DNA from: Vitis vinifera
Taxonomy: Eukaryota > Streptophyta > Magnoliopsida > Vitales > Vitaceae
Assembly (NCBI RefSeq): GCF_030704535.1
Contig: NC_081820.1
Span: 20,835,001 to 20,899,000 of the forward strand
Length of the DNA stretch: 64,000 nt
Direction: 5' to 3'
Below, piece after piece: positions 5,901-47,608 of this stretch (positions within the stretch are counted from its first letter, which is position 1; every line of letters begins with the position of its first letter). The translations under genes and the position numbers were made by a program. A model generated the notes under the pieces. It searched no databases, had not been told where the DNA came from, and saw only the letters and a list, made by a program, of their open reading frames with translations.

Positions 5901-7600
5901 AACATAAGCCAAAAAAAGCCTTGACAACATTTCCTGAGCAAAGAGCTAGCTCGCAAGGCTGAGATCATACGCAGTGGTTTGTCCACATGCTTCCCCTCAA
6001 AACTAAAATTAGGCTGACCAAGAATGCTAAACATCACTCTTTTCCCAAAACAATCAATAGATGCATGGTATGAAGCTAACCAATCAATCCCCAAAATCAC
6101 ATCAAAATCTTGGAGGTCAAGAAGTACTAAGTCAACTATCATCTCTCTATACCCAATCATCATACAACAATCTCTAAGTATTTTATTAACCACAACAGAA
6201 TCTCCCAAAAGAGTAGCAACAAATAAATCAAAGTTCATGTTATCAATCGACATACCCAACAAACCAGTAAAAGATACGGAAACAAAAGAGTGCGTTGAAC
6301 CATGATCAATTAAAGCTCTAGCAAATAAGGTGTGAATTCGAAGGATACCTATCACCACATTAGAAGTAGCCTGAGCATCTCTATGAATCATAGAAAATAC
6401 CCGCCCTTGAGTCCCGGGCTTTTGTCTATCTTCTTTATTCTACTCCTTAAGCTTCCCAAATACAAACTTCTTATTTTCTGGACAATCCCGAACCATATGT
6501 CCTTGTATTCCACAACCAAAGCAAGCTCTTGTCTCTCTATAGCATGACCTACCCACATGCTTCTTACCACAAGTAGGACAAATCCCATCTAAATTTTGTG
6601 TTGTTTTTTCTTTATTCTGATTTCTACTTAGAGCAGACTTTTTCTACGCTTGGTTACCATGAGCACCATCATTTCTATTCCTCTTCCTTTGTTGTTCCCT
6701 ATACTGGTGAAGCTCTTCATTATCCTTCTCAGCAATAAGGGCTTTGTCTACCATCTCTGAATAAACACTAAGCTTCAGAATTGATATCTTATTCTTTAGA
6801 TAAGGCTTCAGTCCATCCTGAAACTTTAATGTTTTTTCTTCCTCTATAGCAATCAACTATAGGGAAAAACGTGATAGTTCAGTAAACTTAGCCTCATATT
6901 GGGCCGCAGTCAAATTCCTCTGTTCCAAACAAACAAACTCTCCCACCTTTTGTCGTCGAACACTATTAGGAAAGTATTTCTTAAAAAAAGCCTCCCTAAA
7001 CTAACTCCAAACAATAGGCCCCTGATCCTCCAAAAACCTCTTAGTCATACGGCACCAATGGTCTGCCTCTTGGTCTAACATAAATGTTACATAAGAGGCT
7101 TTTTGCTCCTCAGAACAATCAATGACATTAAAGAATTTCTCTATCTTCATAATCCAAGCCTATGTCTCTATTAGATCTGAAGTACCAGAAAAGTAAGGGG
7201 GACCCAACTTCTTAAAGTCGTCAAAGGAGCTACCACTAGTAGATGAGGATTGTCATTGACCATTACTTCTAGTAGCTCTAGCCTGACGCTCAACCAAGCC
7301 AGCCAAAGTCCCTAAATATCTATAAAGCCCTTCAGTACTCATAGGGGGCAAAGCCTTAGGTGGGTGAGGTATATCATCATTAGCCTGACTGTTTTGGGAA
7401 GATGCAGGTTTCCTTGGTGGCATGGTGTCCTATAAAGCAAAAGGTATAACTAAATTAGTCACTAAGAAGCCAAATAAGCAAATCAGAATTATAAGGAATA
7501 AAATGAATCGGACTAGATGAAGTTGAAACTTAAACTAATGCATCACTCATCTATTCCCAAAGGTAAACTAAACAAGTTCCCATCAAGATCACAATCTAGT

Positions 7601-10447: not shown

Positions 10448-13400
10448 ATGGAGACTCCCAATAAAAAGTGGAAGAAACAGACCCAAATAGCCAAACGCCT
10501 TTTCCTAGCCATGCCTTCTGCCAAACCCTCCTCAACCTTTTCCTTCTGTACAAAAACCAACATCTATTCACTTGCTGTCATCACCTTCTTCTGCTCCTTC
10601 TCTTACTTCCTCGGCTCCTGGCAACACGGCCGCGGCACCACCTCCACAACGGCAGAATTCAGCCTCCGGGGCCGGTGTAACCCATCACAAAACTCCACCA
10701 ACACAGCCTTGAACGACCCATTCTTGGCACAATTGTCCATAGACTTCTCCACCCATCATGCGGCTGAGGACGGGGTAGCCACCGTGCCGGAGGAGAAGGT
10801 GAAAAGCTACCCTGCATGCGGGGTGGAGTACAGTGAGTACACCCCATGTGAGGGGACGAAAAGGGCTTTGAAGTTTGAGAGAGAGAGGTTGATATACAGA
10901 GAGAGACACTGTCCAGAGAAAGGTGATCTGTTGAAGTGCCGTATTCCAGCGCCGTACGGGTACAGGAACCCACCGGCGTGGCCGGCAAGTAGGGACGTGG
11001 CGTGGTACGCCAATGTGCCGCACAAAGAGTTGACCGTGGAGAAGGCGGTTCAGAACTGGATTATATATGAAGGAGATCGATTCAGATTTCCTGGCGGCGG
11101 CACCATGTTTCCCAATGGTGCTGATGCCTACATTGATGATATCGGAAAGTTGATCAATCTCAAAGATGGCTCCATCCGTACCGCCATTGACACTGGCTGT
11201 GGGGTAAGATAATTACCTTTTTTATAATTCTTGTATATTCAATTAAAGTTGACTTCAGAATGTTTTCGGATAAATTTTTTTCTTGATTTTTAATTGTAAA
11301 TAAATAATAAAAAGATAATTAAACATTTTAGATGGGTTAGGAGCTAAAGTTTAAAAATATATTTTAGATTTTAGTTTTAAGATGTTTAATTCACTTTCGA
11401 ATTGCGTACCGTGAGAGACTTTGGTAGGAATGCGATAAATTAGGGCAAGGAAATTGTAGGAAATGGAGAAAAATCTTCTCACGAGCGTGATGATTCATCT
11501 AATTTTGGACAGGTGAAGAGATAGACGTCTGAAATCTTAAGTAATAAGATATGGATAGCTATGAGAGAAGTCAAAGACAGGACACCTACTTACCATTTTG
11601 TGCCATAAAGTATCCCACATTTTGTCACTAGTTCTTTGCTTTCCATTCAAATTATTAATGATGTCTTTTCATAGGTAAATAAGAAAAAGATAACATTTCT
11701 GAATTATAGTTGGCTTATCTTTCTTTCAAAAATCAAGCCATTGAGCAATATGGATGAGAATGAAATGATAAATCCGGAGACCTTGAAATTCTCTTTGTAA
11801 AATTTTAAACATGTAGGTTGCGAGCTGGGGAGCTTATCTTCTTTCTCGGAACATCATCACAATGTCGTTTGCACCGAGGGACACCCATGAAGCACAGGTA
11901 CAATTTGCTTTGGAGCGAGGAGTTCCTGCTTTGATCGGTGTTCTGGCGTCTATCAGGCTTCCTTATCCGTCTAGGGCCTTTGACATGGCTCATTGCTCTC
12001 GCTGCCTCATCCCATGGGGCCAGTATGGTAACCTCATCATCCGTTTCATCCCTTGATGTCACATTGCTTTTCTCTTTAATTTAATGTCTGCAGCGCCATT
12101 GATCTGAGGGGGAAATCATAGAGTTAGTTTCAATTTGGGTGTACTTATAGTTTTTTTTTTGGGGCATGCCATGGAGCAGATGGGGTTTACTTGATTGAAG
12201 TTGATCGCGTTCTCCGGCCGGGTGGCTACTGGGTGCTTTCTGGGCCGCCAATCAACTGGAAGAAACATTGGAGAGGGTGGGAGAGAACAGAGAAAGATTT
12301 GAAGGCTGAGCAGCAAACCATTGAGAATGTAGCTAAGAGCCTTTGCTGGAAAAAGTTAGTGGAAAAAGATGATATAGCAATTTGGCAGAAACCAATTAAT
12401 CATTTATACTGCAAGGTTAACAGGAAGATTACTCAGAATCCACCATTCTGCCTGCCACAAGATCCGGATAGGGCCTGGTTCGTGCATTATAACTTCATTT
12501 GTTTCTGGTAATCAATTTTCGTGTTTTTAATGCTTATGCTCAAGTTTGATTCAACATGATTGTTTTCAGGTATACGAAAATGGAAACCTGTTTGACTCCC
12601 TTGCCTGAAGTTTCATACAGTCAAGAACTTGCAGGTGGGGAATTGGCGAAATGGCCTGAGAGATTAAATGTGATCCCGCCAAGGATCAGTAGTGGGAGTA
12701 TAAACGGGGTTACAGCTGAGATTTTCCAACTTAATTCAGAACTATGGAAGAAGAGAATGTCATATTATAAAGCTGTGAACAATCAGCTTCGGCAGCCCGG
12801 AAGGTACCGAAACCTTCTAGACATGAATGCCTACCTGGGTGGATTTGCTGCAGCTCTAGTTGAAGATCCAGTTTGGGTGATGAATGTGGTTCCAGTAGAC
12901 GCAAAAATCAACACATTAGGAGTGATTTATGAAAGGGGACTGATCGGAACATATCAGAACTGGTAAATTCGGTCTCATTTCATTCTCAATATGTCCAAAA
13001 GCTTGCTGCTGATAAGTGTTTTGTTGCAGGTGTGAAGCCATGTCTACTTACCCGAGGACATATGACCTCATTCATGCTGATTCAGTGTTCAGCCTCTATA
13101 AGGACAGGTGATCATTTACATAAATGTTATCGTCTGTATAATGTCTAACACAAGGCAAAAAGAACACAAATGTTTCACAGAAGTTTTGATGCTTAGAACT
13201 AGAGTTACCAATATACCCAATTCTACCACTACATGAGAGGGGGAAGGGGCATATTTGAAAGTAACATACACACCCACATGAATGAATTAAAGATACTATC
13301 TCAACCTCCTCTGTTATTTGACTTATAGGATCCCAGCTTTGTGAGATCCCTCTAAGCTTCAAATTCTGATTTATATGGGAAAAAGGGTGATAACTGATGA

Positions 13401-22470: not shown

Positions 22471-22478
22471 TACATGGT
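22471..22478. repeat. Target-site duplication, left copy (TACATGGT)
   Basis: Eight bases directly before the left end of the hAT element, identical to 34986-34993. Eight bases is the hallmark length for hAT insertion. Confidence 0.92.
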
Positions 22479-22496
22479 TAGGAATGGCAATTTCGC

Positions 22497-22660
22497 GGGT
22501 TTCCCGGGTCACCCGCCTCGACCCGCCCCTATTGGGACGGGTATAAGAACATGCCAATCGGGGATGGGCCGGGTTCAGGATTTATTTTAAAACCCGAATC
22601 GGGTTCGGGGCGGGGTCGGGTGTAGTTATAATTTGACCCGCCCCGCCCCGCCCCGATATG
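22497..22660. repeat. Left subterminal GC-rich array of the hAT element
   Basis: Repeated GGGTCGGG, CCCGCC and ACCCGCCCC words in both orientations, in DNA otherwise near 30 percent GC. Subterminal repeats of this kind bind hAT transposase in known elements such as Ac. That role is inferred here. Confidence 0.7.
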
Positions 22661-22683
22661 AAATTACTATTTTACCCCCCACG

Positions 22684-22691
22684 TATAAATA
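22684..22691 (+). promoter_or_regulatory. TATA box of the hAT transposase
   Basis: TATAAATA directly after the GC-rich left end. A pyrimidine-rich stretch follows, and then a good 5' splice site (CCG/GTAAGAT at 22897/22898). This suggests transcription from about 22715, a non-coding first exon and a leader intron of about 2.5 kb before the transposase ATG. Confidence 0.55.
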
Positions 22692-23841
22692 TTAGTTTCC
22701 TCTCCTCATTTTAGGTCTTCTTCTCTCAGACTCTCAGATCTCGTTCCCGTCGGCACTAGGGTTTTTCCTCCCACTCAATGGAGAAATCCATCAGATAATC
22801 CATTCGAAAATCCATTTCCTCTCGATTCATCCTTGTTTATCCCATATTCACAAGAAATCAAGAATCACAGCTATTATCTTCACGTATCTACAAACCGGTA
22901 AGATTTTTTGTTGATTTTTTGGTTGAATGATGCCTTGATTTGGTGTTGTATTCCGTTTCTAATTCGGGCAAGAGATATGAGATTTAGGATTTTTCCATTT
23001 CCAGTTTCAGATTATTGAAGGATTTTTTTTTCTATTAGTTTTCGGGTTGCTATTTAGGGTTTTGAATCCGTTTCTTGCGAATCTTAATAGGGGCTAAGCA
23101 GTCTTTTTTATTGATACGAAACCTTTTTTTTTAATTTTTTATTGATTATATGAACTTGTCAGATTGAATGTTTACTCTTTTTCCCTTTCAACACGAACCA
23201 TTCTTTTTATTGATTGAATGCTTTCAGATTGGACTTTAAAAGAGGATACAATCTTTCGGAGTGGATCATTTGAAGTCTTGACCGAAAACGGTGTGGCACC
23301 ATCTGATGGATGATTTGAAATATTCATTGAGATTGGTGTTATAATTTCATACGTGGAAAAAATCATTCCTCTTTTATTCTAAAATATCCATGATTTCAAG
23401 GTTGATATGTGGAATTCTCAATTTCTGATAGATTGGCATAAGCCCGTTTGGGTAAGTAATTTGGCTTTATAATTTTAATTTAATTAACTGTATACACCGT
23501 ATGCCTGTAATTCCAGAGGAGAAGAAGGAAGAACAAAGATTTAATCTTATTTGCTATATCGTGGCATGTTGGGGGAATAATGGCATTAACTCTACTTTAT
23601 TGTTATTATTATGTTATATATATGTGTGTGAGAGAAGATATACTTTGAAGTTGGTATTTGATGGGTAGGAATTTGATGCAACTAATATAAACTTTTATGG
23701 GTGGATTGGAATAGCTTTGAATAAGCATAGTTGCCTTGATTGGCAGCAATCTGATCATTTGAACTCTTTGTTAGTAATTAACGTCCCTGGATTTGTCAGT
23801 AATTTGTAAAAAAAATTTAGGACATAGTTGTATTTTTTTAG

Positions 23842-24385
23842 CCTCTGAATCTGTTGGTGTTTTGTCTAAATTGGTTAACATTGTAGTGCAAGTACATTGT
23901 TACTTCCAAGCTTTGCACATTTAACAAATGTTATAATAGGCCACTGAACATACTGATGGCATGCTGCTATGTTGGACGGTAAAGTATTACCTACTGCATG
24001 GAAGGTATTGGGAACTTGAAAGGCTTGGGTTAAAGAATGTTTGATTTATTGAAGAATTTGAGGGAAAATAGGAGGGAACAGAGAACTGGGACACATAGAA
24101 ATATAGTATATGCTACCAGTATGGATAAGGACTAGAAAACACAAAGTAAATTGAAACCACATTGTGGGCTACATAACAAATTGAGGGACATGTTGTAGGT
24201 ACCAACGGAAACTTAAACTTACAGGACAAAATCAATGAAAGTGATTCTTAGAGAGAGCTATGTCTGAATCTGTTGGTGTTTTGTCTAAATAATCCTAGTG
24301 CAAGTACATTGTTACTTTCAGGCTTTGCACATTTAACAAATGTTAATAATAGGCAACTGAACATACTGATGGCTTGCTGGTATGG
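23842..24385. repeat. Direct duplication in the transposase leader
   Basis: Segments of about 125-135 bp at 23842-23975 and 24262-24385 share the run from TCTGAATCTGTTGGTG to ATACTGATGGC, with a few substitutions and one short gap. A second shared piece (TATGGATAAG..ACTAGAAAAC) lies at 24120 and 24382. It looks like an internal tandem duplication within the presumed leader intron. Confidence 0.7.
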
Positions 24386-25431
24386 ATAAGAACTAGAAAA
24401 CAAGAAGTAAATTTATAACAGTCTTTTTGCGCCCTTCTTTTCTTTTTTTTTTGTTTTTTTGTTTTTGTTTTTGTGTGTGTGTTCTTGGTTGGATGGGGGC
24501 ACACATCTCTGCTGGGTTGGCTTTTATGCGACCAAGGGGTGAGTGTTACCTCACGTGTATAAATGGAGGACCTTAGAATACATTTGGTATTTGATAGATT
24601 TCTATTCATCCTTCTCCCTCTTCAATTTTTGGGGGTACTCCATTGAATAATTAACTTAATTGGGATATGTCAAAGAGGGTTGGTTGTAAGACCCTTTTAG
24701 TCTCAACTCTACCTTGTTTGGGTTTGATTAAGTTAAATTTCTCTAACTAGTGCTTCTTTTCCCTCTGAACATGTACTATGCATTCCATCAATGAACCCAT
24801 TTCTAGTGCGTATCACACTAAGATACAATCTAATGACACTAATATTCATGTGCTTTTTACTAGTAACTATTACAAATGAGTCATTTGCCCTTGTTTAATT
24901 TTTATGAAACTGCCACTTTTGCTTCCATGTTAAATCCTATTCAATATTTTTCAGCTGTATGTGTTTTGTGCTAGTGGTCTCCATATTGTGCCATTCAATA
25001 TAGAATTATTCTTCCGTAAAATTCTTTTGTCTTTAGAGAATTTGATTTTCAAATTTTGTCCGTTAATAGTTTTGATATTGGTTAAATATTCCTAATTTCA
25101 AGGTTTTGTTTTGTTTTCTGGTTATTACTTTTTAGAATATTCTTTGTTTGCTTTTGTTTTACTTTGTTTTCTGTTTTTTTTATTTTCTTCTCACTTGCTG
25201 TGGGCTGTCCATATAAACTGCATGTGTCTTTCGGTTGCACTGCCCTCGATGCTTTTCTATTACATTTATTTTCCTATTAATGGAAACTATGTTGACATCT
25301 TGCAATTCTTGGAGGTTAACCTAAATACAATCTTGCCTTTTAAACCCTTGCTTCAAGCCCTATCCAAGCTTTAGGTTACTAATTTAGGTTTGAATGTTTT
25401 ACTTATAGACTTTATTTGTTCATTAAGAAAA

Positions 25432-27644
25432 ATGACATCAGAAGAAGGGGAAAACTTTTCCATGCCAAGTGCGGGTTCAACTCCAATTACAGGCAGTACT
25501 TCAACTACTGATGGAACCTTGGTATCTAAAAGAAGAAAGTTGACTTCGGTTGTTTGGAATGATTTTGATAAAATCATAGAAGATGGACAAGATTATGCTA
25601 TTTGTAAGCATTGTAAGGGAAAGCTTAAGGCCGATAGCAAGAATGGGACAAAACACTTACATGTACACATAGATAGGTGCATGAAACGAAGAAATGTTGA
25701 TATTAGGCAACAATTATTGGCAGTAGAGAGAAAAGGTCATGGAAAAGTTCAAATTGGTGGTTTTACCTTTGATCAAGAAATGTCAAGAGAGAAGCTTGCA
25801 CGTGCAATTATATTGCATGAGTACCCACTTTCAATCGTTGACCATGTGGGGTTTAGAGATTTTGCTACTAGTCTCCAACCCTTGTTTAAGATGGTTTCCC
25901 GCAATACGATTAAGGGTGATATAATGAAGATTTATGAGGTTGAGAAAGATAAGATGATTAGCTACTTAGAGAAACTTCAAAGTAGAGTTGCTATCACAAC
26001 TGATATGTGGACATCAAATCAAAAGAAAGGCTACATGGCTATCACTGTACATTACATTGATGAGTCTTGGTTACTACACCATCATATTGTAAGGTTAGTT
26101 ATGTTATTTTTTTTTAACTTCCAAAGTGTTTTTTTATTTGATCCTTTAATGATATTGTTTGTGTTAATGATATTTTTTATTCTTAATTTAGGTTTGTTTA
26201 TGTGCCTCCTCCACACACAAAAGAAGTTCTTTCAGATGTATTAATGGATTTCTTGTTGGATTGGAATATGGATAGAAAAGTTTCTACAGTCACTGTGGAT
26301 AATTGCTCAAGTAATGACGGGATGATCAATATCTTGGTGGAGAAATTATGTTTGAGCGATTCACTCTTATTGAATGGAAAAATTTTCCACATGCGATGTG
26401 CGGCACATGTGTTGAACTTAATTGTTAAGGAAGGTTTGGATGTCATTGAAGTAGAAATTGAAAAAATTCGTGAGAGTGTTGCATATTGGTCAGCAACCCC
26501 ATCAAGAATGGAAAAGTTTGAAGATGCAGCTCGCCAATTGCGTATTCCATGCAATAAGAAGTTAAGTCTTGATTGTAAGACACGATGGAATTCCACATAC
26601 TTGATGTTATCAATTGCTATAACATATAAAGATGTGTTCCCACGTTTGAAGCAACGTGAAAAATACTACATGGTTGTGCCAACAGAGGAAGAATGGAATA
26701 TGGCAAAGGAAATATGTGGAAGATTGAAATTGTTTTACAACATAACAGAGTTGTTTTCAGGACGAAATTATCCCACTGCAAATACTTTCTTCATCAAAGT
26801 GTGCGAAATCAAAGAGGCATTGTATGATTGGTTGATATGCTCAAATGATGTTGTGAAAACGATGGCATCAAGTATGTTGCAAAAGTTTGACAAGTATTGG
26901 AGTGGGTGTCATATTGTGATGGCAATAGCAGCTATATTTGACCCAAGATACAAGATAAAGATTTTAGAGTTTTACTTTCCACTAATGTATGGGTCTGAAG
27001 CTTCAAATGAGATAGAAAAAATCCGTGGAATGTGTTATGAGTTGCTTTCTGAGTATCAATCAAAGTCTAATTTGGGGCAAAAAACTTCATCCTATGGTAC
27101 TTCATCAGGTTCAACTCTTTTGGAGTTAAACTATGATGAACAAGATCCTCTTTCAAAGTTTGACTTATTTGTTCATAGTACCATTGGAGAAAGTCATACG
27201 AAGTCGGAGTTAGATTATTACTTAGAGGAGTCTATTCTGCCAAGGAATTCAAATTTTGATGTTTTAAGTTGGTGGAAGACAAATGGTATAAAGTATCCGA
27301 CTTTGCAGATGATTGTTCGTGATATCTATGCTATTCCGGTATCTACAGTTGCATCTGAGTCAGCCTTTAGCACGGGTGGTAGGGTGGTATCAAAACATCG
27401 CAGTAGGCTTCATCCAGATACTTTGGAGGCCTTAATGTGTGCTCAAAGTTGGTTATGGAAGGAAAAAGAAGGTAACCGATTTACATAATTATCAATTTTA
27501 TGAATTGTTTTTTATTAAAATATTTAGTAAAGTTTTCTAATAATTTTTTTGGTGTTTTTTTTTTTACTAGGTGATTCATCAATTCATGACTCACAACCCC
27601 AACTCACAATGATGGATGAAAATGATGATTTACTTGTACTTTAG
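25432..27644 (+). CDS. hAT transposase (zf-BED, RICESLEEPER-like), three exons, uninterrupted
   Basis: Exons 25432-26093, 26192-27471 and 27571-27644 (all GT-AG, phases consistent) give 671 residues. A basic KRRK patch (33-36) precedes a BED zinc finger at about 41-84 with Trp42, Cys58, Cys61, His77/His79 and Cys83. The catalytic domain follows, with the first acidic motif ITTDMWTS, the second VTVDNCSSND and the hallmark CAAHVLNLIV and RWNSTYLML blocks. The C-terminal dimerisation domain (about 577-645) carries LSWWKTN, YPTLQMIVRDI and ASESAFSTGGRV. The last exon adds a short acidic tail. All expected blocks are present at normal spacing and I see no defect, so the protein may be functional. 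The ATG at 25432 is the first in frame; the reading frame extends a little upstream without an ATG. It would act in the nucleus on the element's TIRs and subterminal repeats. Domesticated relatives (DAYSLEEPER type) exist, but here it sits inside its own element. Confidence 0.93.
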
Positions 27645-28062
27645 ATTTTTTACTTAAGATGATGTTAGAGACATTTTTTCTTTCTTTTTTGCTAACAATT
27701 TCTTTGTAATGTCTTTTTTTTTATTTTTTTTCAATGTTGTTAAGCTTATGGATTTATTTTAATTTTGGATATTATATTTTGGCATGTCTTCTATGATGTT
27801 AATTACCATGGTTGTAACTAAGAACCACATTCTTTACAATCAAGTTCAAGACTTGCAAGGTAGAGTCCTTGTAAGGAAATGTTATAGATGAGACGCTAGG
27901 TAGCCTGATAATCACCCATCTTGGCTGGGGGTGCAGCTGAGCTATGGTTGATCTTTTGGGGCATTTGGGTGGAGATCTCTCTCTTTGTGGATGGATATAT
28001 AGTAGGATAGTCTCCTGCTTCATGCTAAGTAAGCACCCTCTCCCTCTCACAAAGATATATAG
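27645..28062. other. Spacer inside the hAT element
   Basis: Presumed transposase 3' untranslated region and junction to the captured ABCB piece. The word ATATATAGTAGG occurs twice (about 27995 and 28050), possibly marking a small duplication at the capture junction. Confidence 0.45.
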
Positions 28063-28756
28063 TAGGTTGTCAAACTGCCCAAGGTAAGCCTATTTTCTTT
28101 CTTCCTCCTTTTATTATGGTGAAATTCCTTCATATTCAGCATGCTAGAAAAAGTTACAAATCTTCTGTTTGTTAAATAGAGAAACAATTCTTCTTTCCTT
28201 ATAAAGGCTTGCAATATTTGGAATGGTTGTGGTGTGTATACAGGGGCTTGACACAATGGTGGGTGAACATGGAACTCAGCTATCTGGGGGACAGAAGCAA
28301 AGAATTGCAATTGCAAGAGCCATTTTGAAGAACCCACGAATCCTTCTTCTTGATGAAGCAACAAGTGCACTGGATGCTGAGTCTGAACGCATCGTCCAAG
28401 ATGCACTAGTAAATGTGATGGTAAATCGAACTACTGGTAAACAAATAGCACGCGTACTTGGGAAGGTTTTGTTTATTTCCTTTTCTTTCTTTTCTTTTAA
28501 ATTTCTCTTAGTATATTAAACTGGTTGAATCAGGATCCTGCTGTTAAACTTTAGTTTTGTACTTCATGTCCATACATTTATAAATATAGCAGACCTACAT
28601 GTAAAGATTTGGAGGTTAATTATTTTTGTTGCATGCCAATATTTAAACAAAAGCTGTTGCTATATTTTTCAGGCACCCACAATTGCAGCAGCAGCTTATT
28701 TGAGGATGGCAAGAAGACCTCCAGTTCTCCCTTCCAGCAGTTTTTCTTACTCATAG
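28063..28756 (+). pseudogene. Captured ABCB transporter exon fused in frame to peroxisomal citrate synthase exons
   Basis: A few codons ending KLPK (to 28082) stop at a 5' splice site. After an intron, the exon 28244-28436 encodes [17 protein letters not shown] (ABC signature) and [12 protein letters not shown] (Walker B and D-loop), then NRTT. This is the first or second nucleotide-binding domain of a plant P-glycoprotein-type ABCB exporter. At 28437 the same exon continues in the same frame into [10 protein letters not shown]. It ends at a splice site (28465/28466) and joins 28673-28756, which encodes APTIAAAAYLRMA and RPPVLPSS before a stop. That second part is the mid-region of peroxisomal (glyoxysomal) citrate synthase. 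Neither parent protein is complete: the ABCB piece lacks Walker A and the membrane domains, and the citrate synthase piece lacks the catalytic C-terminus. The stop truncates the chimera. Introns are retained, so capture was at DNA level. Confidence 0.85.
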
Positions 28757-28908
28757 AATCAAATGTATAACATAAATGCTTACATACTACTTTTATGGTA
28801 GTGCTACTTGTAAGATGTGCAACATAAATACTTGAATACTTATGTTGTTGTGGATTCACATACTGGTTCTAATTTGTGGCGTTTTGTAAATAAAAAAAAT
28901 AATTATAG

Positions 28909-29647
28909 GCTTTGCTGAAAATGGGTATTCGTGGTGTTACTGTTTCTGATGTCCGAGGCTTTGGTGCTCAAGGCGGTTCGCCTGAAAGACAGGCAGGTAA
29001 GTTCTTGCTTTGTGGAGGTGTCAAGTATTTCATTTTTCATGTGCTGGATATTGCATAATAGAAAAAATAGCTGATTACAATTTATATCTATACCCCATTC
29101 CTCCTTGTCCCTTTCCACCCACCTAAGTTGAATAACCGTACCTATGAACCCCTTTCCTCTTTGGCTTAGTTGCTGAAAACTATTCAAATAAATGGAAAAG
29201 AAATGCAGTTTGTGTGACATGAAATTTTTTTTCCTTTTTCGGTTTTGAAGATCTAGGGTTTGGGTGTTGGGTTCAATTTGGGGAGGGGAAAATTTGATAC
29301 ATGGTTTAGTTTATTTTTCTACAATTTCTTCCTTCTCTTTCTTTGGTAGTCTCTTCTTTGGTGCCTATGCTATCTTTACTATTTTGTTCTTGTTTGTCAT
29401 GCTGCAGGCTCTGAATTTTCTGAGGACAAATTTGTTGCTAAAGTTAAAATGGAGATTGTGGTGAGCAAAGACCAGGTATATTTAAAACTAAAACAGTCTA
29501 AATGGCCTTATAAACAAGAAGATTCACACTGTTTCCATTGCTGTACCACTCTTCAAATCTTTCCATTCCTGTCTTAGGTTGAAGCAGTAATTGACAAGAT
29601 CAATGAGGTGGCAAGGACTGGAGAGATTGGTGATGGCAAGATATTTT
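28909..29647 (+). pseudogene. GLB1: Captured fragment of nuclear-encoded PII protein (GLB1)
   Basis: Three exons with proper splice sites, 28909-28996, 29408-29475 and 29578-29647, encode about 75 residues in one frame. They start ALLKMGIRGVTVSDVRGFGAQ, continue with GSEFSED and VAKVKMEIVVSKDQVEAVIDK, and end ARTGEIGDGKIF. This is the core of the plastid nitrogen/carbon sensor PII, including the T-loop region and the C-terminal ARTGEIGDGKI signature. The transit peptide, first beta strand and C-terminal end are missing, so it cannot make a normal PII trimer subunit. The frame itself is clean, which suggests recent capture. It lies between the ABCB/citrate synthase chimera and the TIGR01589 fragment within the hAT element. 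Confidence 0.88.
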
Positions 29648-31226
29648 GTAAGATTTCAGGCTTTCTTCTTTAGGTTTTAAAAATGGTGGAATCCTTTAAT
29701 TTTCTAGTTTTCTGAACTTCAGAGCTATGCTCTGTGACTTCTGGGTGAATAAGCCAAGGAAACTTAATCTAACCTTGTCATTTGCAGCTATTAAGAATCT
29801 TCGCAATTTCATTTATACATACCCATAAAATTAAATTTCACCAATGGCTCTGTTTTGTGAAGGAGCATTAGTGACAATCATACCATGATCATGTATGTAG
29901 CACACAGAACACCATGGAACAAAGAAAACTGCAATCTGGAAAAATGGATAAAAGTTGCATTCTTTCGAGGGAGGGGACACTCTCTATGCACCAACATTCT
30001 AATAATTGGTTCTTCACCTTGAAATAGTAGTGTTATTTGTGATGAAGGAGATGAATAGTGATAATGATGGTTTTGATAATTGACTTTTATCCGACATGAG
30101 TGAGCCTTGTTACTTGGTCTTATTGGGTGAAAAACATTTCATTGGATGAGCTACCCAACATGAATGACCTCACACTCATATGCGTCAATCACAGGATAAC
30201 CCTTTCTCTTGCATATCACCTCCCCACATTTTGCTATCTTTTATTGCCTCTCATGTTAAAATGCTCTCTCTCTCTCTCTCTCCCTCCCTCCCTATCTACC
30301 CATTTACGTACTTTTGAAGCATTTTTGTAATAGATGAAGGAAATATGCATTTCATGCTACAAGTTGTAGGAAAATGGAGAAGGCTTTTAATTGCTTATAA
30401 TTTCACTTGGTTTTTCACAAAGAGAATTCAGGTGAGGATTAGCAAAACAAATAATATTGATTTCCTTCAGTCCTGCAAAAGTTTCTAATTAAATGCATGG
30501 TTTTTGAAGTTGACTTTTATTTTAGTCTTACAAGTATTTTGTTCTTCTGTGTTCCAATTTTATGATTGATTTTTACTGTGATTTGCTATTTATAATTTTA
30601 TACTTGCATATTTTGCTTTTCCATGTGCTTCTTTCCTGATGGTGCTATATATATATATATTCATAATTCATTTATTTCCAGGCGAAAACTGTCTCAACTT
30701 TATGAAGTATTAGAGATTTAGATGCAAACTTTTGAACTTAGTGAATCAGACAACCTTAGCTGCAGCTGGGAGATACCTGAGCTAAACAGAGAGATGAGTT
30801 CAACTTGCATTCAGATGTAATGAAGACCTTACAGGTTCTGCATTGATATTTTCCAGTCTTTAGTACAAATTTTGCATTTTTATTTCTCACATGATTGAAT
30901 TAAGGAGTCAGTTACTCATTTAGTCTAGATGCTATCCCTTGATGAATGGACTTAAAACAACTTAGTTGAGTTGGAACATGATCCTCAGACCTCAACATTT
31001 TTAGGAATGTCATCAGGCTATAATATTCATATACACACATGATGTGATTAGGAAGATTAGCATTTGTGACCCCTTGGTTAAAAAGGAGGGAAAAAAAACC
31101 TCCTAAGCTTTGCTTGTTGACCCCAGTCATGGTGCAATTCTTTGCATAATTTTTTAAAACCTTTTCTTAAAATGGTTTGTTGATCTGCATTTGTGTTCTT
31201 GACCAACACTAAGAAACCTTCCATAG
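29648..31226. other. Cargo spacer inside the hAT element
   Basis: No recognised coding block. A CT microsatellite is present at about 30264-30285 and an AT run at about 30646-30660. A splice-like acceptor followed by a short frame at about 30682 and text near 30720-30835 could be 5' flank carried along with the next captured gene. This is not proved. Confidence 0.4.
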
Positions 31227-32350
31227 GATTCACAGAGTGCACAGGAAATACAGTCCTCAACCCAAGTTTCACATGAGTCCCAAAGTGACCACCAGAACAA
31301 CACAGCAGAGGCTCCTGTGGCAGACTCAGGTTCAATATGCATTTCAAGCAATGATAGCAGGAAAGTTTCGCGTGAAGATATTGAACTTGTAAGACATTAT
31401 TTGCTTTCTACTAATGGATTTTTTTTTTTTTTTTTTTGTGTTGATCTCCAAAAGGGAGCTCAACAAATCTGTTTCTTATGTCGGGCTTAATAATTTTTGC
31501 AAAAACTTTCCTCCAGGTCCAGAATTTGATAGAACGGTGCCTACAGTTGTACATGAACAGGGATGAAGTGGTGAAGACCCTCTTGAGTCGTGCAAGGATA
31601 GATCCTGGATTTACAACTTTGGGTAGGCATTGGCAGGCCTTTCCATAAAGTCCAAAATCATTAACATCCACATATTTTATCATCTTAATTGGTTAACTAT
31701 TATGTCCATTTCTTTTAAATCTATGCTCATGTAAGAAATTCTGTTTGTTATTAAATTAATGGTTCGTCAATCTTTTCTTCCTCACTCTTGCTTAGGAAGA
31801 CGAGCACTTTTCCAACTGGGTGGAGTTGCATTGCATCTGACTGTGATAGGACTCTTCTAGTCTTATTGGAGCCTTGTAACTAGTGGCTGGTTTCCCATTA
31901 TTAGAGTGTTTGGATGAAATTGACCCAAGAGTCAATAAAGTGGAAACTAAATTTGATGTGATAAAAAATATAGATATTGTCTGATGTCTTCTTTGATGTG
32001 ATGGAAAACTAAATTTGACGTGATAAGAAGTTTATCCTTTGTTTTCTTATAAAGGATAAACTTGTCTTTTGAGAAGCTTAGCCGCCTAATAAATACGATA
32101 TTTGTTTGTCTAATGCTTCCAAGCAAGCATTGTTTTCTGATGTCCTCTTCTTTCTTTGTTAACTCAGTATGGCAGAAGTTGGAAGAAGAAAATGCTGATT
32201 TTTTCAGGGCCTATTACATAAGATTAAAATTGAAGAAACAAATCATTTTGTTTAATCATTTGCTTGAGCATCAGGCTCATCTCACGAATTATCATGTGTC
32301 TCCAAAAGTTCCTTTGGCGCCCATACAGAATGGAATCCATCCCATGCCTG
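31227..32350 (+). pseudogene. Captured fragment of a plant-specific TIGR01589 (A_thal_3526) domain protein
   Basis: Exons 31227-31388, 31517-31622 and 32168-32350 join in one frame (GT-AG, phases 0, 0 and 1) and give about 150 residues. A Gln/Ser-rich N-terminal part leads into VQNLIERCLQLYMNRDEVV, LLSRARIDPGFT and VWQKLEEENADFFRAYY, then LKKQIILFNHLLEHQ. This is the conserved plant-specific domain of unknown function catalogued as TIGR01589. The true N-terminus and the end are missing: the last exon stops at a splice donor after HPMP, and the next captured exon downstream belongs to a different gene. The host function of the parent is not known to me. The frame is clean, as in the other cargo pieces. 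Confidence 0.8.
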
Positions 32351-32875
32351 GTAAGTATTGACTTTACAATTTTATAGTCATGCAAAAGCTCAAATTACCT
32401 ATACTATTTCAATGCTTGTGTGAGCACTGTTATATAAACTATTTTCATGATCCATAGCATCATAAAAAAACACTAATTGCTGTGTTGACTTTAATTTGAA
32501 AATCTTGATTTTTTGGATAGCCTTAAAATGTGAATAGATAGGTCTTCTTGTGGGCTATCTTGATCAGACGTTTTCTGTAATTTTTGAGCTCTTTGTATAC
32601 CACCAGTGTACATTGGGTGCACCTCTTATTGTTAGGTGCTGTTCTCTTAATATATTATCTATTTTCCTATAAAAGAAAAGAAAACCATGAACTAAATTTC
32701 TTTTTAACATGTATGAAATTTTTTACCAGATGAACAGAAATGATAACAGAACTTCATATTCCCTTTTAGTATCCCTTTGTGGGGTTTTGGAGGTTCAACA
32801 GTAACCTCTCTTCCAAAATTCTAATCAAGTTAAAGAAGTAAAATTCTACCTTTTGTATTTTTGTGGTTTTTGCAG

Positions 32876-33172
32876 GCTCTGGCAAAGCTGGTCGCAGTTT
32901 GTGGTCCCTACCATCGAATGACAGCAGGAGCTTACAGCCTCCTTGCTGTAGTTTTGTATCATACGGGGGACTTCAATCAGGTCCATTACGAGTCCATTTT
33001 GTCTTGGTGTTCATGGAATCTTCTCTGTTATAGAATAATAAATTTGTTGTCTTTCTCAATGTTCTGTTAAACTATTTCTAGAACTAGGACTTGATCATCC
33101 AGACACGATGAAGAGTTATGGAGATCTTGCTGTGTTCTATTACAGACTTCAACACACTGAATTGGCTCTCAA
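32876..33172 (+). pseudogene. Captured fragment of a CLU/REC-type TPR protein
   Basis: The exon 32876-32980 encodes [20 protein letters not shown] and [15 protein letters not shown] second piece (about 33083-33172) encodes [20 protein letters not shown] and [10 protein letters not shown]. Both are consecutive tetratricopeptide repeats of the clustered-mitochondria family, the plant group that includes FRIENDLY and REDUCED CHLOROPLAST COVERAGE (REC). The REC branch fits best from memory. The residues normally between them (the helix with the QQKALDINERE-type sequence) are absent, so a stretch was lost or lay on an exon not captured. The splice acceptor at 32875 follows the TIGR01589 fragment's donor at 32350, but the phases do not match (1 versus 0), so splicing between them would leave the TPR frame. 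Confidence 0.83.
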
Positions 33173-34171
33173 GTATGTTGGTCTTGTGTAATGCACTATT
33201 GACTTTTCATGTATTATTCATAAACATTTGTGCTTTCTTGCTTGAAATTTCAGCAATCAAGTTATATTGTTTTTCCCTTTTTTTGATACTTACCATTTTT
33301 TTTGTTCCTACTGGAACTCAAACTTGAAACCTCCCTTCTTTATTGTTGTTGTCATTTAGTTTTTTTTTTTCACTAAATAAGATGATATTGTCATTTATTA
33401 CTGAGAGTCTGACATGAATAAAAGCCAATTAGTTTTTTTAAACCTTTATTCTGACACTGTTTGAATGATAATTTTGTTAAATCAAGTCCCAATTATATGC
33501 AGTGGAAACAATTGAGGAATTTTATTTGACTAAAGATTATGAAGGATGTTGAATCAAAGGTTTCAACATTTGGACTGTACTTTAGAAATAATATATTAGC
33601 TTGTCTTCCACATTACTTACCATTAGGATTACAGGAGGAACTATTGCTTCTGTAGTGATTCCATTTTGTTCTATTAGGTTTCAGCAACATGCTTCACTTT
33701 TTATATTGTTTGAATGCTAAATCATAGGTTTTTATCCTCAGTTGGATCTACCTATCTGCTTGATTACCACCCTATTACAAGTAACTTCACTTAGATTGCA
33801 GTCTTAGAGACTATAAAGAATTCTGTGTAGATGTGTGCCAACTACTGTTCTTCTGAACTGGGGAATTTGTAATCCTACCATAGGTTGTAAGTTTTGGGTC
33901 TGTAAAACTAATTAGTTTATTACCAAATTATCTATGCATTTTGCTGATGTAAGTCTCCTGTTTCTCTTCATGTTTATTATGATTGTTCAAGGTTGTAACA
34001 ATGAATTCCTCTTGTTTATATGCAGGACCTCTGAACAAGGCTCTTCTAGTACGTATAACTTGCATTGAAAGCTCTCTTAGATATTCAAAGTTTTTCATCC
34101 ACCTATTTCTCACATACTAAAGTAGAGATACTTCATATTGTTCTTCTGAGGTCAATCATTGTTGTGAAAGA
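33173..34171. other. Cargo spacer inside the hAT element
   Basis: No recognised coding block. At about 34025 an acceptor-like TATATGCAG precedes a short frame beginning GPLNKALL, which might be another small captured piece. Confidence 0.35.
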
Positions 34172-34387
34172 ATGGAATCATCTGTGTTGCCTTTGGAGTT
34201 CAATGGGAACACTGATCGGTGCATAATTCAAACTGCAGTGTCGCAATCTGTCCAAAGCAATGTTTCTGGAGCTGTGGATGCTTCTGCTTCTGAGGTGTCT
34301 ATACATGAATGTTTTAGGCCCACATCAATGTTTGAGAAACAGGCTAAGGTGGATGCCATACTTATAAATTTTTGTATTATTCCTTGA
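34172..34387 (+). pseudogene. Unassigned open frame near the right end of the hAT element
   Basis: A 71-codon frame starting MESSVLPLEFNGNTD, rich in Ser, Val and Ala, with a plausible splice donor after EKQAK (AAG/GTGGAT). Its composition is protein-like, and it lies in the cargo zone between a captured TPR fragment and the GC-rich end. It may therefore be a further captured exon. I do not recognise the parent gene. Confidence 0.35.
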
Positions 34388-34754
34388 ACTTGCTTCCAGA
34401 AATAATCTGGATTTGAATAGCTTGTAATGGGCATTTGGTTTTTTGTTCATCATCATTAAGCCTTTTATTGGCAATTTATCTGTGCTGACAAATACAGAAC
34501 AACTAGTTTTGGTAGTTTGAATTAGTTTGTCTAATTTCTTTAGTTTTGCTTTCCCTTTCTTGTTTTGGATTTTTTTTCTAAGTAGAAACTTGACTGGTTA
34601 TATGGGCTGGATCTGTGGGTGTGATTTCAGATTTTGATTTTTCTGTTTTATGCTGTCATGCTTGGGAAGATTCAGTTGTTTTGATGGACATTGCTCATGT
34701 TGGTTGGATTGTTTATCACAAGGGTGAGGTACAGGGCAGGCATAGCAGGCTATG

Positions 34755-34973
34755 GATTCCAGCCCAGCCCAGCCCAGCCCCGCCCCGCCCCGCCCCGCCC
34801 CGAAAACACATACCCGGGTCGGGACAGGCCGGGGATGGGATTTTAATTTTAACCCTATAACGGGGACGGGAATGCCCCGCCCCGCCCCTCCCCGGGTTTG
34901 GGACGGGTTGGGAAATAACTAAATCTAATTGGGACGGGAATGGGATAGGGGTGACCCGTCCCAAACCCGCCCG
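34755..34973. repeat. Right subterminal GC-rich array of the hAT element
   Basis: Begins with CAGCCCAGCCC and a run of four to five CCCCG units, followed by CGGGTCGGG, GGGACGGG and CCCGTCCC words. It mirrors the left array and ends at the right TIR. Confidence 0.75.
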
Positions 34974-34985
34974 TTGCCATTCCTA

Positions 34986-34993
34986 TACATGGT
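34986..34993. repeat. Target-site duplication, right copy (TACATGGT)
   Basis: Identical to 22471-22478 and placed directly after the right TIR of the hAT element. Confidence 0.92.
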
Positions 34994-35180
34994 AAGCTTT
35001 GAACTATTGACCCATCTAGAAGTTGAATTAGGAGACTTATATGTGTAAATAATAAGTACAATAAAAGAAAAGCACATATGATCGCAGCCTCTAAATTTAG
35101 AATCAAGGCTACTATAAAACAAAAGAGACTTTAAAATTGGTATGTCTTCCTTATTAAAGTTAATTCACACAACAAAATAT

Positions 35181-35936
35181 CCACTCAAAGTATTTAAATT
35201 GATCACGGTATAAAAAAGACTATGACACTGAAATTTGTAAAATGAAAATTTTTAACACAAATCTTACCTCATGCCCCATGAACTTTTAATCTTGGAAGCT
35301 CAGTTTCCAGATTTATCAAATAATTAAGTTGTGACTTTAGTGCAACACTTCAAATAAATATTGGTGACACAGAGAAAACAAAATTGGTATCACCTGACTC
35401 TGAAATGATGGCTTCTGGATATATATATATATCCAATGAAAGTATTTAAATTGATCACTGTATAAAAAAGACTAAGACACTGAAATCTATCAAATGGAAA
35501 TTATAACACAAATCTTACCTCATGCCCATGAACTTTTGATGCTAGAAGCTCAGCTTCCAGTGTCTTATCAAATAATTAAGTTGTAACTTTAGTGCAACAC
35601 TTCAAATAAAATATTGGTGGCGTAGAGAAAACAAAATTGGTATTGCCTGACTCTAAAAATGATGGCTTTTGATTAACTCCTTCATATATATATTCAATGA
35701 AAATATTTAAATTGATCACTGTATAAAAAAGACTATGACCTGTAAAATGGACAATTTTAACACAAATCATACCTCATGCCCAAGAACTTTTGATGCTGGA
35801 AGCTTAGCTTCCAGTGTCTTATCAAATGATTAAGTTGTGACTTCAGTGCAACACTTCAAGTAAATATTGGTGGCGTAGAGAAAACAAAATTGGTATCACT
35901 TGACTCTAAAAATGATGGTTTTTGGTTAACTCCTTT

Positions 35937-36002
<66 letters not shown>

Positions 36003-36518: not shown

Positions 36519-38928
36519 ATGGGATATCTGTGGTATGCTTTTGCTTTCACAGCGACCTTACTTGTATGTATTACACATTGGGTTTACAGTTTTAGGAAGC
36601 CCAAGTTCAATGGAAAGCTCCCTCCGGGTTCAATGGGCTTGCCAATTCTCGGAGAGACTCTTCAGTTCTTTGCTCCCAATACCGCTCTAGATGTCGCACC
36701 TTTCATCAGAGAGAGAATGAACAGGTAATTAAGCTAAAGGCTCTACTTAGGCAAATTAATGAATCCTTGCTTAAATATAGTCTGCTTGTACAAGGATCAC
36801 TTGTTTCATACTAGCAGAACCATAATACTATTCATCTTAAAGCATAGTGCATGATTTGTTGTCAGGTACGGGCCATTGTTCCGAACAAGTCTGGTGGGCT
36901 GGCCACTTGTTATTTCCACTGACCCAGACCTCAGCCGCTTCATCCTCCAACAGGAGGGGAAGCTGGTTCACAGCTGGTACACAGAAAGTTTTGACAATGT
37001 GGTAGGCAAGCAGAATGTGCTTTCAGCTAAAGGGGCTATGCACAAGTGCCTCAGAAACTTGATTTTGAATCAATTTGGCTCTGAAAGCCTAAAAACAAGG
37101 TTTCTTACTCAAGTTGAAGAGTTGGTGCTGAAACATCTGCAGTTGTGGTCTAACTGTACCTCTGTGGAGTTGAAAGAAGCCATTGCTTCTGTAAGTTTTC
37201 TCAGTTTCCAAACTCTTCTGCGTTATATTCAAGTACTCCTTACTACCCTAATTATAACAACTCTTTGATTTAATTTACAGATGATATTTGGGTTTACTGC
37301 TAAAAAGCTGTTTGACTATGATGAGTCAAGGACCCCAGAGAAGCTGAGAGAGAACTACGCTGCTTTTCTCGATGGTTTGATCTCATTCCCTCTGAAAATC
37401 CCTGGAACTTCTTATTGGAAATGTCTACAGGTAAAGCTGACTATAGTCTGATCTTGTTTATACCCTTATCGAACAAACTTTAACCTCAAATTATGTTAGG
37501 GTCGTAAAAGGGCAATGAAAACAATAAGAAATATGTTGGATGAGAGGCGTGCATCACCTGAAAGGGAAGACAAAGATTACATTGATTTTGTCCTAGAAGA
37601 GATGCAGAAGGATCAAACCATCCTAACCGAGGAAATCGTTTTGGATTTACTCTTTGCACTTCCTTTTGCTACTTATGAAACCACTTCCTCGGCTCTTGTA
37701 TTAGCCATTCAGTATCTTGGTAGCCATCCTTCAGCATTAGCAGAGATAACAGTAAGTAACACTATATTTTGAAGCTTTTAATTGATACTAATTAATCCTC
37801 TTTTCTTTTCCCATCACCAAATTTTTGGTTCATTTTTCTACTTGCAGAAAGAGCACGAGTCAATTCTAAGGAGCAGAGAAAGAGTGGATTCTGGAATCAC
37901 ATGGAATGAGTATAAATCCATGAATTTCACGATGATGGCAAGTCCAAAGAATTTTCTTGTTCTATGAAGAAAAATAAATTATTCATGGGAATCTAGTTTC
38001 ATAGTTTGTGCTGTGAATTTGCATTGCAGGTTATCAATGAAACTGTTAGACTTGGAAATATCGTCCCTGGAATTTTCAGGAAAGTGGCAAAAGACATTGA
38101 AATAAAGGGTATGTTTCGGCCGGCCCTCTACACTGTAATCTTTGACCTTACATCTTGGACACATTTTGAAGTGAATTGTATATGCATTGTATATAGGGTA
38201 TACAATTCCAGCAGGGTGGATGGTTATGATCTCCCCTCCAGCTGTCCATTTCAACCCCACTCTGTACAAGGACCCCCTTGTCTTCAATCCATGGCGATGG
38301 CAGGTATACTATCAGTTCAGAGCCCATCATTTGATACTATTAGGTTGAACCCACATTAATAAACGGGAATGTATTGATTTCTCATTCTCTATTCCAGGAC
38401 TCCAAAGATGGCCTTAGTGATATCCATCTGGAGGAGAGTCCGATGAAAATTGCTTGAGTATAGTATTTAAATGCCATTCCTAACAATTAGTTGTTTATTG
38501 CTAAAACAAACAACAGTGCCAAGAACCAAATGCAGGGTCAAGAAATTTCATGGGCTTTGGTGGAGGAATAAGACAATGTGTGGGAGCTGAGTTTGTGAAA
38601 CTTCAAATGGCCATTTTTCTCCACCATCTGCTTACAAAATACAGGTACTTAATCATACAACACTAGATTGTTCACTCATGGTTGAGGCACGCACGCACCT
38701 GAGTAATTTGGGTCACTCACTTTGTGCTTAATTACCTAGAGTTGTTGCATCAATACAAACATTATATTGTAATAATACTAACATGGTGAGTTTATCCATC
38801 TATTCAGGTGGACAGTGATCAAGGGAGGAGACACCGTTTGGAAGCCAGGACTTGTGTTTCCAAAAGGTTTTCACGTTCAAATATCTGAGAGAACCAAGTT
38901 GTATGAAGATAGTCCCATGGAAACATAA
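36519..38928 (+). CDS. Cytochrome P450, CYP87-like (gene A), nine exons
   Basis: Exons 36519-36724, 36866-37190, 37281-37430, 37500-37751, 37848-37937, 38030-38108, 38197-38303, 38517-38644 and 38808-38928 give 485 residues, a normal plant P450 length. It has an N-terminal membrane anchor (about 3-25) and a proline hinge KLPPGSMG. The I-helix oxygen-binding motif ATYETT is at 284-289, the K-helix ETVR at 345-348, FNPWRW follows, and the haem loop FGGGIRQCVG carries the ligand Cys424. All key residues are present, so it should be an active ER monooxygenase. The family call (CYP87, clan 85, acting on steroid- or triterpene-like substrates in known members) rests on remembered similarity to CYP87A and cucurbitadienol hydroxylase-type proteins. 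The substrate is unknown. Intron 5 uses a GC donor (ATG/GCAAGT). It is the upstream member of a tandem pair with 44132-47608 and sits behind a five-copy repeat array. Confidence 0.92.

Positions 38929-44131: not shown

Positions 44132-47608
<3,477 letters not shown>

What the first reader, a model, noticed from the sequence alone, without database searches (positions are those of the whole stretch)
22479..34985. A 12.5-kb autonomous-looking hAT element that carries fragments of at least five host genes
Sequence shows perfect 12-bp TIRs, an exact 8-bp target duplication, a complete 671-residue hAT transposase frame and cargo recognisable as ABCB, citrate synthase, PII, TIGR01589-type and CLU/REC-type genes. 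Gene capture is known for Pack-MULEs, Helitrons and CACTA elements and has been noted for hATs. Captures are usually found in non-autonomous elements, whereas here transposase and a multi-gene cargo share one element. It may therefore move its own exon-shuffling payload.
Basis: partly seen in the sequence, partly recalled or inferred. Interest (0 to 1): 0.92.

Follow-up and report, generated by a model that had tools for sequence, protein, structure and literature searches.

The report
Grapevine hAT transposon carrying gene pieces
In DNA that matches grapevine, a 12.5-kb jumping gene with an unbroken gene for its own predicted mobility enzyme carries pieces of at least five plant genes, and other predicted grapevine proteins hold parts of the same cargo in other combinations; grapevine elements of this kind were already described in 2008.

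Summary
A 12,507-bp hAT element lies at 22479-34985 with perfect 12-bp TIRs, an exact 8-bp TSD and a three-exon, stop-free 671-aa transposase. The species is grapevine (VitviT2T_000999 is identical over 652 aa). A predicted Vitis vinifera protein (XP_010648030.1) carries ABCB, a longer citrate-synthase part, CLU, the sixth exon and the element's 3' stretch; no other copy with the whole combination was seen. Other Vitis gene models join similar transposases to other host exons. Cargo therefore appears to be gained and trimmed in steps (inferred). Benjak et al. 2008 already described a grapevine hAT family (Hatvine-6) of variable length with intact transposases and captured introns and exons, so transposase and cargo in one element is not new for this species. 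Added here is the anatomy: sense-only fragments, an in-frame ABCB::citrate-synthase exon, and a captured gene start with its own ATG. Movement and expression are untested.

The parts
22471..22478 (.). left target-site duplication TACATGGT
   Evidence: sequence; identical copy at 34986-34993
22479..22490 (+). left terminal inverted repeat TAGGAATGGCAA
22491..22738 (.). left GC-rich subterminal region (likely transposase-binding region, inferred)
   Evidence: 6 CCCGCC motifs (both strands) in the first 260 bp, 0 in the 11,987-bp interior; GC 0.52 against 0.35 inside
25432..26093 (+). transposase exon 1 (BED-like zinc finger below cut-off; presumed first catalytic Asp)
26192..27471 (+). transposase exon 2 (hAT-like RNase-H PF14372, hAT dimerisation PF05699)
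27571..27644 (+). transposase exon 3, completing 671 aa
   Evidence: nearly the same C-terminus in P0001
28244..28465 (+). ABCB transporter exon fused in frame to a citrate-synthase exon ([10 protein letters not shown]...[14 protein letters not shown])
   Evidence: same junction in P0121
28673..28756 (+). second citrate-synthase exon, cut off by a stop
28909..28996 (+). PII exon a
29408..29475 (+). PII exon b
29578..29647 (+). PII exon c
30820..30834 (+). TIGR01589 gene exon 1 with start codon (MKTLQ)
   Evidence: P0122 begins MKTLQDSQ
31227..31388 (+). TIGR01589 gene exon 2
31517..31622 (+). TIGR01589 gene exon 3
32168..32350 (+). TIGR01589 gene exon 4 (VWQKLEEEN... to ...NGIHPMP)
32876..32980 (+). 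CLU/TSS exon ([15 protein letters not shown]...); read in another frame in P0121, P0241 and P0253
33082..33172 (+). CLU/TSS exon (ELGLDHPDT...ALK); the stretch ATIYQQKALDINER that lies between the two in a CLU protein (P0245) is missing
   Evidence: stretch present in P0241 and P0245
34171..34348 (+). sixth cargo exon (MESSVLPLEFN...FEKQAK), donor unidentified
   Evidence: related exon in P0022, P0121, P0242
34631..34684 (+). short 3' exon-like stretch, the last exon of P0121
   Evidence: 17 of 17 residues shared with P0121
34726..34973 (.). right GC-rich subterminal region
   Evidence: 7 CCCGCC motifs (both strands) in the last 260 bp; GC 0.63
34974..34985 (-). right terminal inverted repeat
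34986..34993 (.). right target-site duplication TACATGGT

Best explanation
This is a 12,507-bp hAT DNA transposon with matching ends, an 8-bp target duplication and an unbroken transposase reading frame, and it has likely gathered same-sense fragments of at least five host genes in steps between its transposase gene and its 3' end while likely remaining able to make its own predicted transposase. The likely route of capture is copying of host genomic DNA into the element during repair of breaks (gap repair, or fork stalling with template switching), because introns are kept and at least one breakpoint (ABCB::citrate synthase) lies inside exons; this step is inferred. By comparison of predicted proteins, a second cargo version exists in V. 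vinifera (P0121) with a longer citrate-synthase part and no PII or TIGR01589 part in its model, and V. piasezkii has an ABCB + CLU model that keeps a CLU stretch lost in the window. So cargo was likely gained or trimmed at different times, with ABCB + CLU as the older part. The TIGR01589 part looks recent: 154 of 155 residues equal a full-length protein of unnamed source. Its captured start codon, the in-frame ABCB::citrate-synthase exon and the kept splice sites would allow chimeric transcripts; transcription is untested.
For: Ends, TSD and frame; uniqueness. Transposase domains. Residues D191, D257 and E610 (catalytic by motif, recalled) conserved in 13, 15 and 14 of 15 aligned homologues; Hermes transposase structures match, E610 within the main alignment (60.4 bits in the best hit), D191 only in a weak one (5.0 bits) and D257 in none shown. 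Species and copies: P0002 identical over 652 aa; P0001 99%, cluster of 24 members. Cargo families. All six cargo fragments found are on the transposase strand. P0121 shares ABCB::CS, CLU, sixth exon and the 3' stretch; P0241 and P0253 share parts. P0022 carries a transposase followed, after 18 other residues, by the sixth exon; CLU sequence follows the transposase in P0018 and P0026 (Pfam) and, by shared tail strings, in P0007, P0008, P0009 and P0017. Of 42 Vitis-like proteins picked from the 120 listed (of 2335 hits), 23 carry a non-transposase tail of 40 aa or more; of 12 such fusions scanned, 10 had a host Pfam domain (9 above cut-off, P0045 below) and P0022 and P0024 had none. Transposases 97-99% identical to the window's carry CLU tails that the window lacks in that form (P0008, P0009, P0018, P0026; tree).
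Against: No DNA of other copies, no donor-gene DNA, no RNA and no empty site could be examined; the search of the window's own genome did not complete. Gene predictors can fuse only sense fragments to the transposase, so sense tails in other copies are no evidence of bias; only the window's six fragments are unbiased, and they may not be independent captures. No other copy with the whole cargo was seen. P0253 could be a model of this same locus in another assembly. P0003, nearly identical to the window's transposase, ends in another frame at the exon-2 end, so some copies or readings are broken. The order of gains rests on protein models only.
Confidence: 0.8

Rival explanations
1. The cargo was brought in by another mobile element (a Helitron or other transposon) that inserted into an ordinary hAT element.
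For: Same-sense multi-gene cargo with introns is also what Helitrons can carry (recalled).
Against: A simple scan (exact GC-rich stem of 6-12 bp, loop 2-6, then CTRR-T) found no Helitron-like 3' end on either strand of 27601-34985, and no nested TIR of 9 bp or more with an 8-, 9- or 10-bp duplication. Other Vitis models join transposase to cargo exons and cargo to the hAT 3' stretch.
Confidence: 0.07
2. Two neighbouring hAT copies moved as one unit (macrotransposon), taking along the DNA between them, as proposed for Pack-TYPE elements.
For: Gisby and Catoni 2022 (PMC8903248, section 9 read) propose acquisition by fusion of neighbouring insertions for Pack-TYPE elements, hAT included.
Against: The fragments come from at least five gene families and at least one junction cuts through exons, which one stretch between neighbours would not give; with up to one mismatch the TIR 12-mer occurs in the element only at its two ends.
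Confidence: 0.15
3. The element is dead freight: the transposase frame is intact but not expressed, the element is moved in trans if at all, and the chimeric gene models are annotation artefacts.
For: P0121, P0253 and the transposase fusions are predicted models; the 2008 table gives only 2 EST hits for Hatvine-6; the citrate-synthase part ends in a stop.
Against: The 671-aa frame is open with the presumed catalytic residues kept, and several near-identical transposases exist, which suggests recent spread.
Confidence: 0.3

Closest known systems
Hatvine-6 / hAT-6_VV (Benjak, Forneck and Casacuberta 2008, PMC2528002; sections 6, 10 and 12 and passages read)
   Same: grapevine hAT, variable length, shared transposase and TIRs, many intact ORFs, variable region often made of genic introns and exons
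Pack-hAT elements of maize and rice (Gisby and Catoni 2022, PMC8903248; passages and section 9 read)
   Same: hAT TIRs and 8-bp TSD around captured coding DNA
   Different: defined there as non-autonomous; elements with a transposase match were classed as autonomous and kept apart
Gene-fragment-carrying Ds2 and Ds-l4 elements of maize (Du et al. 2011, PMC3260210; passages read)
   Same: hAT superfamily, captured gene fragments with introns
   Different: non-autonomous Ds elements; 2 Ds2 and 9 Ds-l4 elements with gene fragments, called rare for hAT
CACTA transposon of soybean with mobilised gene fragments (Tgm-Express; PMC1947982, search listing only)
   Same: several captured gene fragments, novel exon combinations
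   Different: CACTA superfamily

Membership tests
hAT superfamily | 8-bp target-site duplication | tested here: met
   TACATGGT on both sides
hAT superfamily | short terminal inverted repeats | tested here: met
   12 of 12 bases
hAT superfamily | hAT transposase with RNase-H and C-terminal dimerisation domains | tested here: met
   PF14372 107.6 bits, PF05699 108.7 bits; Hermes match E 7.7e-18
hAT superfamily | BED zinc finger | tested here: inconclusive
   PF02892 16.7 bits, below its cut-off of 20.6
Hatvine-6 | grapevine hATs with similar transposase but a variable, often gene-derived remainder | tested here: met
   protein models against the description; TIRs of other copies not seen
Hatvine-6 | TIR 13 bp, TSD 9 bp as tabulated | tested here: not met
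   12 bp and 8 bp here; the same paper's text gives 8-bp TSDs for the high-copy families
Hatvine-6 | sequence match to hAT-6_VV | not testable with these tools
   no Repbase copy on hand
Pack-TYPE (Pack-hAT) | captured coding DNA between TIRs | tested here: met
Pack-TYPE (Pack-hAT) | no transposase (non-autonomous) | tested here: not met
   intact 671-aa transposase frame
autonomous transposon | able to mobilise itself | not testable with these tools
   needs an excision assay

The most novel reading that the evidence does not exclude
A grapevine hAT lineage has become a self-moving exon-shuffling machine: a fixed front end (TIR, promoter, transposase) drives a cargo bay at the back into which sense, splice-ready gene fragments are loaded one after another, so that each jump spreads transposase-host fusion transcripts and new multi-domain proteins, some of which (such as the ABCB::citrate synthase::CLU chimera) may have become working genes.
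Probability: 0.15. Interest if true: 0.8.

Novelty: new member of a known kind. Interest (0 to 1): 0.45.

Why it matters
It is an unusually complete example of a transposon that keeps its own enzyme while carrying a layered set of host gene pieces. Because very similar transposases carry different cargo, grapevine may offer a series of copies in which the steps of gene capture by hAT elements, an open mechanistic question, could be read one by one. At least one public grapevine protein (named ABC transporter B family member 18) appears to be transposon cargo and is probably misnamed.

Tried and rejected
Helitron ends and nested TIR/TSD pairs in the cargo stretch: none with 5-, 8-, 9- or 10-bp duplications (the 2-3-bp matches there lie in the GC-rich end, or in an A/T-rich pair). 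A third near-TIR at 38471-38482 has no partner with a matching duplication in the window. Rfam: no match in the window. Sixth exon: Pfam found nothing for it or for the longer relative P0242, and the PDB gave only a chance-level match (E 0.22); from memory, P0242's later part resembles the stretch before the kinase domain of Raf-like MAPKKKs (CTR1/EDR1 type), which no call supports. Another short piece (MNSSCLYAGPLNK..., about 34 kb) gave no Pfam match. ORFs in the 5' region 22479-25431 were listed but not scanned for domains. Papers: Hatvine-6 is named in 1 paper of the library and Pack-hAT in 2; the wider searches (one search listed 15 of 20) showed no later study of this grapevine family that I recognised from titles and abstract starts.

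Errors of my own: the rows 'TIG4' and 'CLU-a alt' were read one base off and show stops; the right frames are. The protein search was flooded by TIGR01589 proteins, so donors of the ABCB, citrate synthase, PII and CLU parts were not found. Tree: 32 rows, 30 of the 42 proteins plus 2 outgroups; 12 shorter or partial ones were left out by hand, transposase ends were cut by hand, cargo labels were set by hand from Pfam and shared tail strings, and rows marked 'none' may have short or unidentified tails (P0004: 52 aa).
Full report
WHAT WAS CLAIMED AND WHAT IS THERE. All of this is in the sequence. The ends are TAGGAATGGCAA at 22479-22490 and its inverse at 34974-34985, flanked by TACATGGT on both sides. 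With low-complexity matches filtered out, this is the only such pair 0.2-25 kb apart in the window, and 200 shuffles gave one such pair in all. Both ends are rich in G+C (0.52 and 0.63 over 260 bp against 0.35 inside) and hold 6 and 7 CCCGCC motifs against none in the 11,987-bp interior, as expected of hAT subterminal binding sites (inference).

TRANSPOSASE. Exons 25432-26093, 26192-27471 and 27571-27644 give 671 aa without a stop. Pfam finds the hAT RNase-H and dimerisation domains well above cut-off and a BED finger below cut-off. Presumed catalytic residues D191, D257 and E610 (assigned by motif, recalled) are kept in 13, 15 and 14 of 15 aligned homologues. Hermes transposase structures match (best E 7.7e-18); E610 lies in the main alignment, D191 only in a weak second stretch. 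The host is grapevine: P0002, annotated VitviT2T_000999, equals the window over its 652 aa, and P0001 is 99% identical with 24 cluster members.

CARGO. Between the transposase and the 3' end, on the transposase strand and with splice-site-like borders, lie: an ABCB exon running in frame into a citrate-synthase exon; a second citrate-synthase exon cut by a stop; three PII exons; four exons of a TIGR01589 gene with its start codon (exon 4); two CLU/TSS exons lacking a stretch that lies between them in a CLU protein (P0245); and a sixth exon (MESSVLPL...) of unknown donor. Family evidence: ABC_tran 48.1, P-II 61.9, A_thal_3526 92.1 and TPR_12 31.7 bits, above cut-off; citrate synthase below cut-off in Pfam and NCBIfam, but E 1.7e-12 to a peroxisomal citrate synthase 3 and 1.4e-13 to another citrate synthase in the PDB; PII E 1.8e-34 to PDB 2o66, a PII protein. 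The TIGR01589 part equals a full-length protein of unnamed source (P0122) at 154 of 155 residues, so it looks recent if that protein is the grapevine donor.

THE CARGO IS SHARED IN PART AND VARIES. P0121 (XP_010648030.1, Vitis vinifera, predicted, named ABC transporter B family member 18) reads ABCB::citrate synthase - CLU - sixth exon - the last stretch before the 3' GC-rich end. It has the same ABCB::citrate-synthase junction (3 of 70 residues differ) but a much longer citrate-synthase part, for which the element gave no match, and no PII or TIGR01589 part in the model. P0253 (V. vinifera) joins the TIGR01589 part to CLU, and may be this very locus in another assembly. P0241 (V. piasezkii) joins ABCB to CLU and still holds the CLU stretch missing here. 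So neither V. vinifera version is simply the parent of the other, and ABCB + CLU looks oldest (inference). No second copy with the whole combination was seen.

THE FAMILY AT LARGE. Of 42 Vitis-like transposase proteins picked from the 120 listed (2335 hits in all), 23 carry a tail of 40 aa or more beyond the transposase. Of 12 fusions scanned, 10 had host domains: Ras, tRNA synthetase with COPA/B, protein kinases, eIF3_p135 (CLU central domain), HMG-CoA synthase with or without DUF707, and a weak PfkB; P0045 is below the curated cut-offs, and P0022 and P0024 had none. In a tree of 30 of these rows and 2 outgroups two Vitis clades appear: one of 9 rows, 7 of which I labelled by hand with kinase/PfkB-like cargo, and one of 21 rows with CLU (6), COPB with or without MetRS (3), HMG-CoA synthase (1), the sixth exon (1), the window (1) and 9 without a label. 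In the larger clade P0008, P0009, P0018 and P0026 are 97-99% identical to the window's transposase but carry CLU tails from other parts of that protein; others there are more diverged or fragmentary (P0017 82%, P0019 77%). So cargo seems to turn over faster than the transposase (inference). Predictors can fuse only sense exons, so this list cannot show a sense bias; the window's six same-strand fragments are suggestive only.

COMPARISON WITH WHAT IS KNOWN. Benjak et al. 2008 (PMC2528002; sections 6, 10 and 12 read) describe Hatvine-6: variable length, 35 copies with more than 90% of the transposase, 17 with potentially functional ORFs, shared transposase and TIRs, and a remainder that is often genic introns and exons. 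They also report that all but one of the transposon insertions they tested were polymorphic among cultivars; the text does not say whether Hatvine-6 was among them. The element here fits the description, except that the table gives TIR 13 and TSD 9; the family name is therefore likely but not proven. Maize Ds elements with gene fragments (PMC3260210, passages) are non-autonomous, and Pack-hATs (PMC8903248) lack a transposase by classification. Capture by gap filling or template switching is proposed for animal Pack-TIRs (PMC8277862, passages), and by fusion of neighbouring insertions for Pack-TYPE elements. A 2026 review of gene capture in plants (PMC13317346) has no occurrence of the word hAT in its main text by the search.

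VERDICT. Real, well bounded, and a fine specimen, but of a kind already reported in the same species. Added here are the layered cargo, the in-frame ABCB::citrate-synthase exon shared with a public predicted protein, the captured gene start, and the sixth fragment. Autonomy, expression and the mechanism of capture are predicted, not shown. On checking, the confidence was lowered slightly (0.82 to 0.80) because no second copy with the whole cargo was seen.

Noticed in passing
28244-28465 and P0121 (XP_010648030.1): A public predicted grapevine protein named ABC transporter B family member 18 is a chimera of transposon cargo (ABCB, citrate synthase, CLU, sixth exon, hAT 3' stretch) and is probably misnamed.
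   Followed up: yes
P0016, P0024, P0028, P0029, P0030, P0033, P0045: A second Vitis hAT transposase clade carries its own cargo set (protein kinase and PfkB-like pieces, labelled by hand); P0029 and P0024 end in proline/arginine-rich stretches that resemble translated GC-rich subterminal repeat (by eye).
   Followed up: partly
23844-24420: Internal duplication in the element's 5' region: blocks at 23844-23971 and 24119-24159 recur about 260-420 bp downstream at 85-100% identity.
   Followed up: no
35177-35943: Three tandem copies of a 253-bp unit start about 190 bp beyond the element's 3' end.
   Followed up: no
2949-6391, minus strand: Broken LTR-retrotransposon remains: reverse transcriptase above cut-off, integrase and chromo-like matches below it.
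   Followed up: no
10448-12966: Gene pieces of a putative SAM-dependent methyltransferase (Methyltransf_29).
   Followed up: no
36876-37268 and 44443-44832: Two similar ORFs (MFRT..GWP.VIS.DPD.SRF..QQEGKL...), likely paralogues; no Pfam match in these pieces; cytochrome P450 by recall only.
   Followed up: no
54642-55182: A 48-bp unit repeated 11.6 times with long open frames on both strands (155 and 203 aa).
   Followed up: no
38471-38482, minus strand: A TIR-like sequence with one mismatch and no partner.
   Followed up: partly
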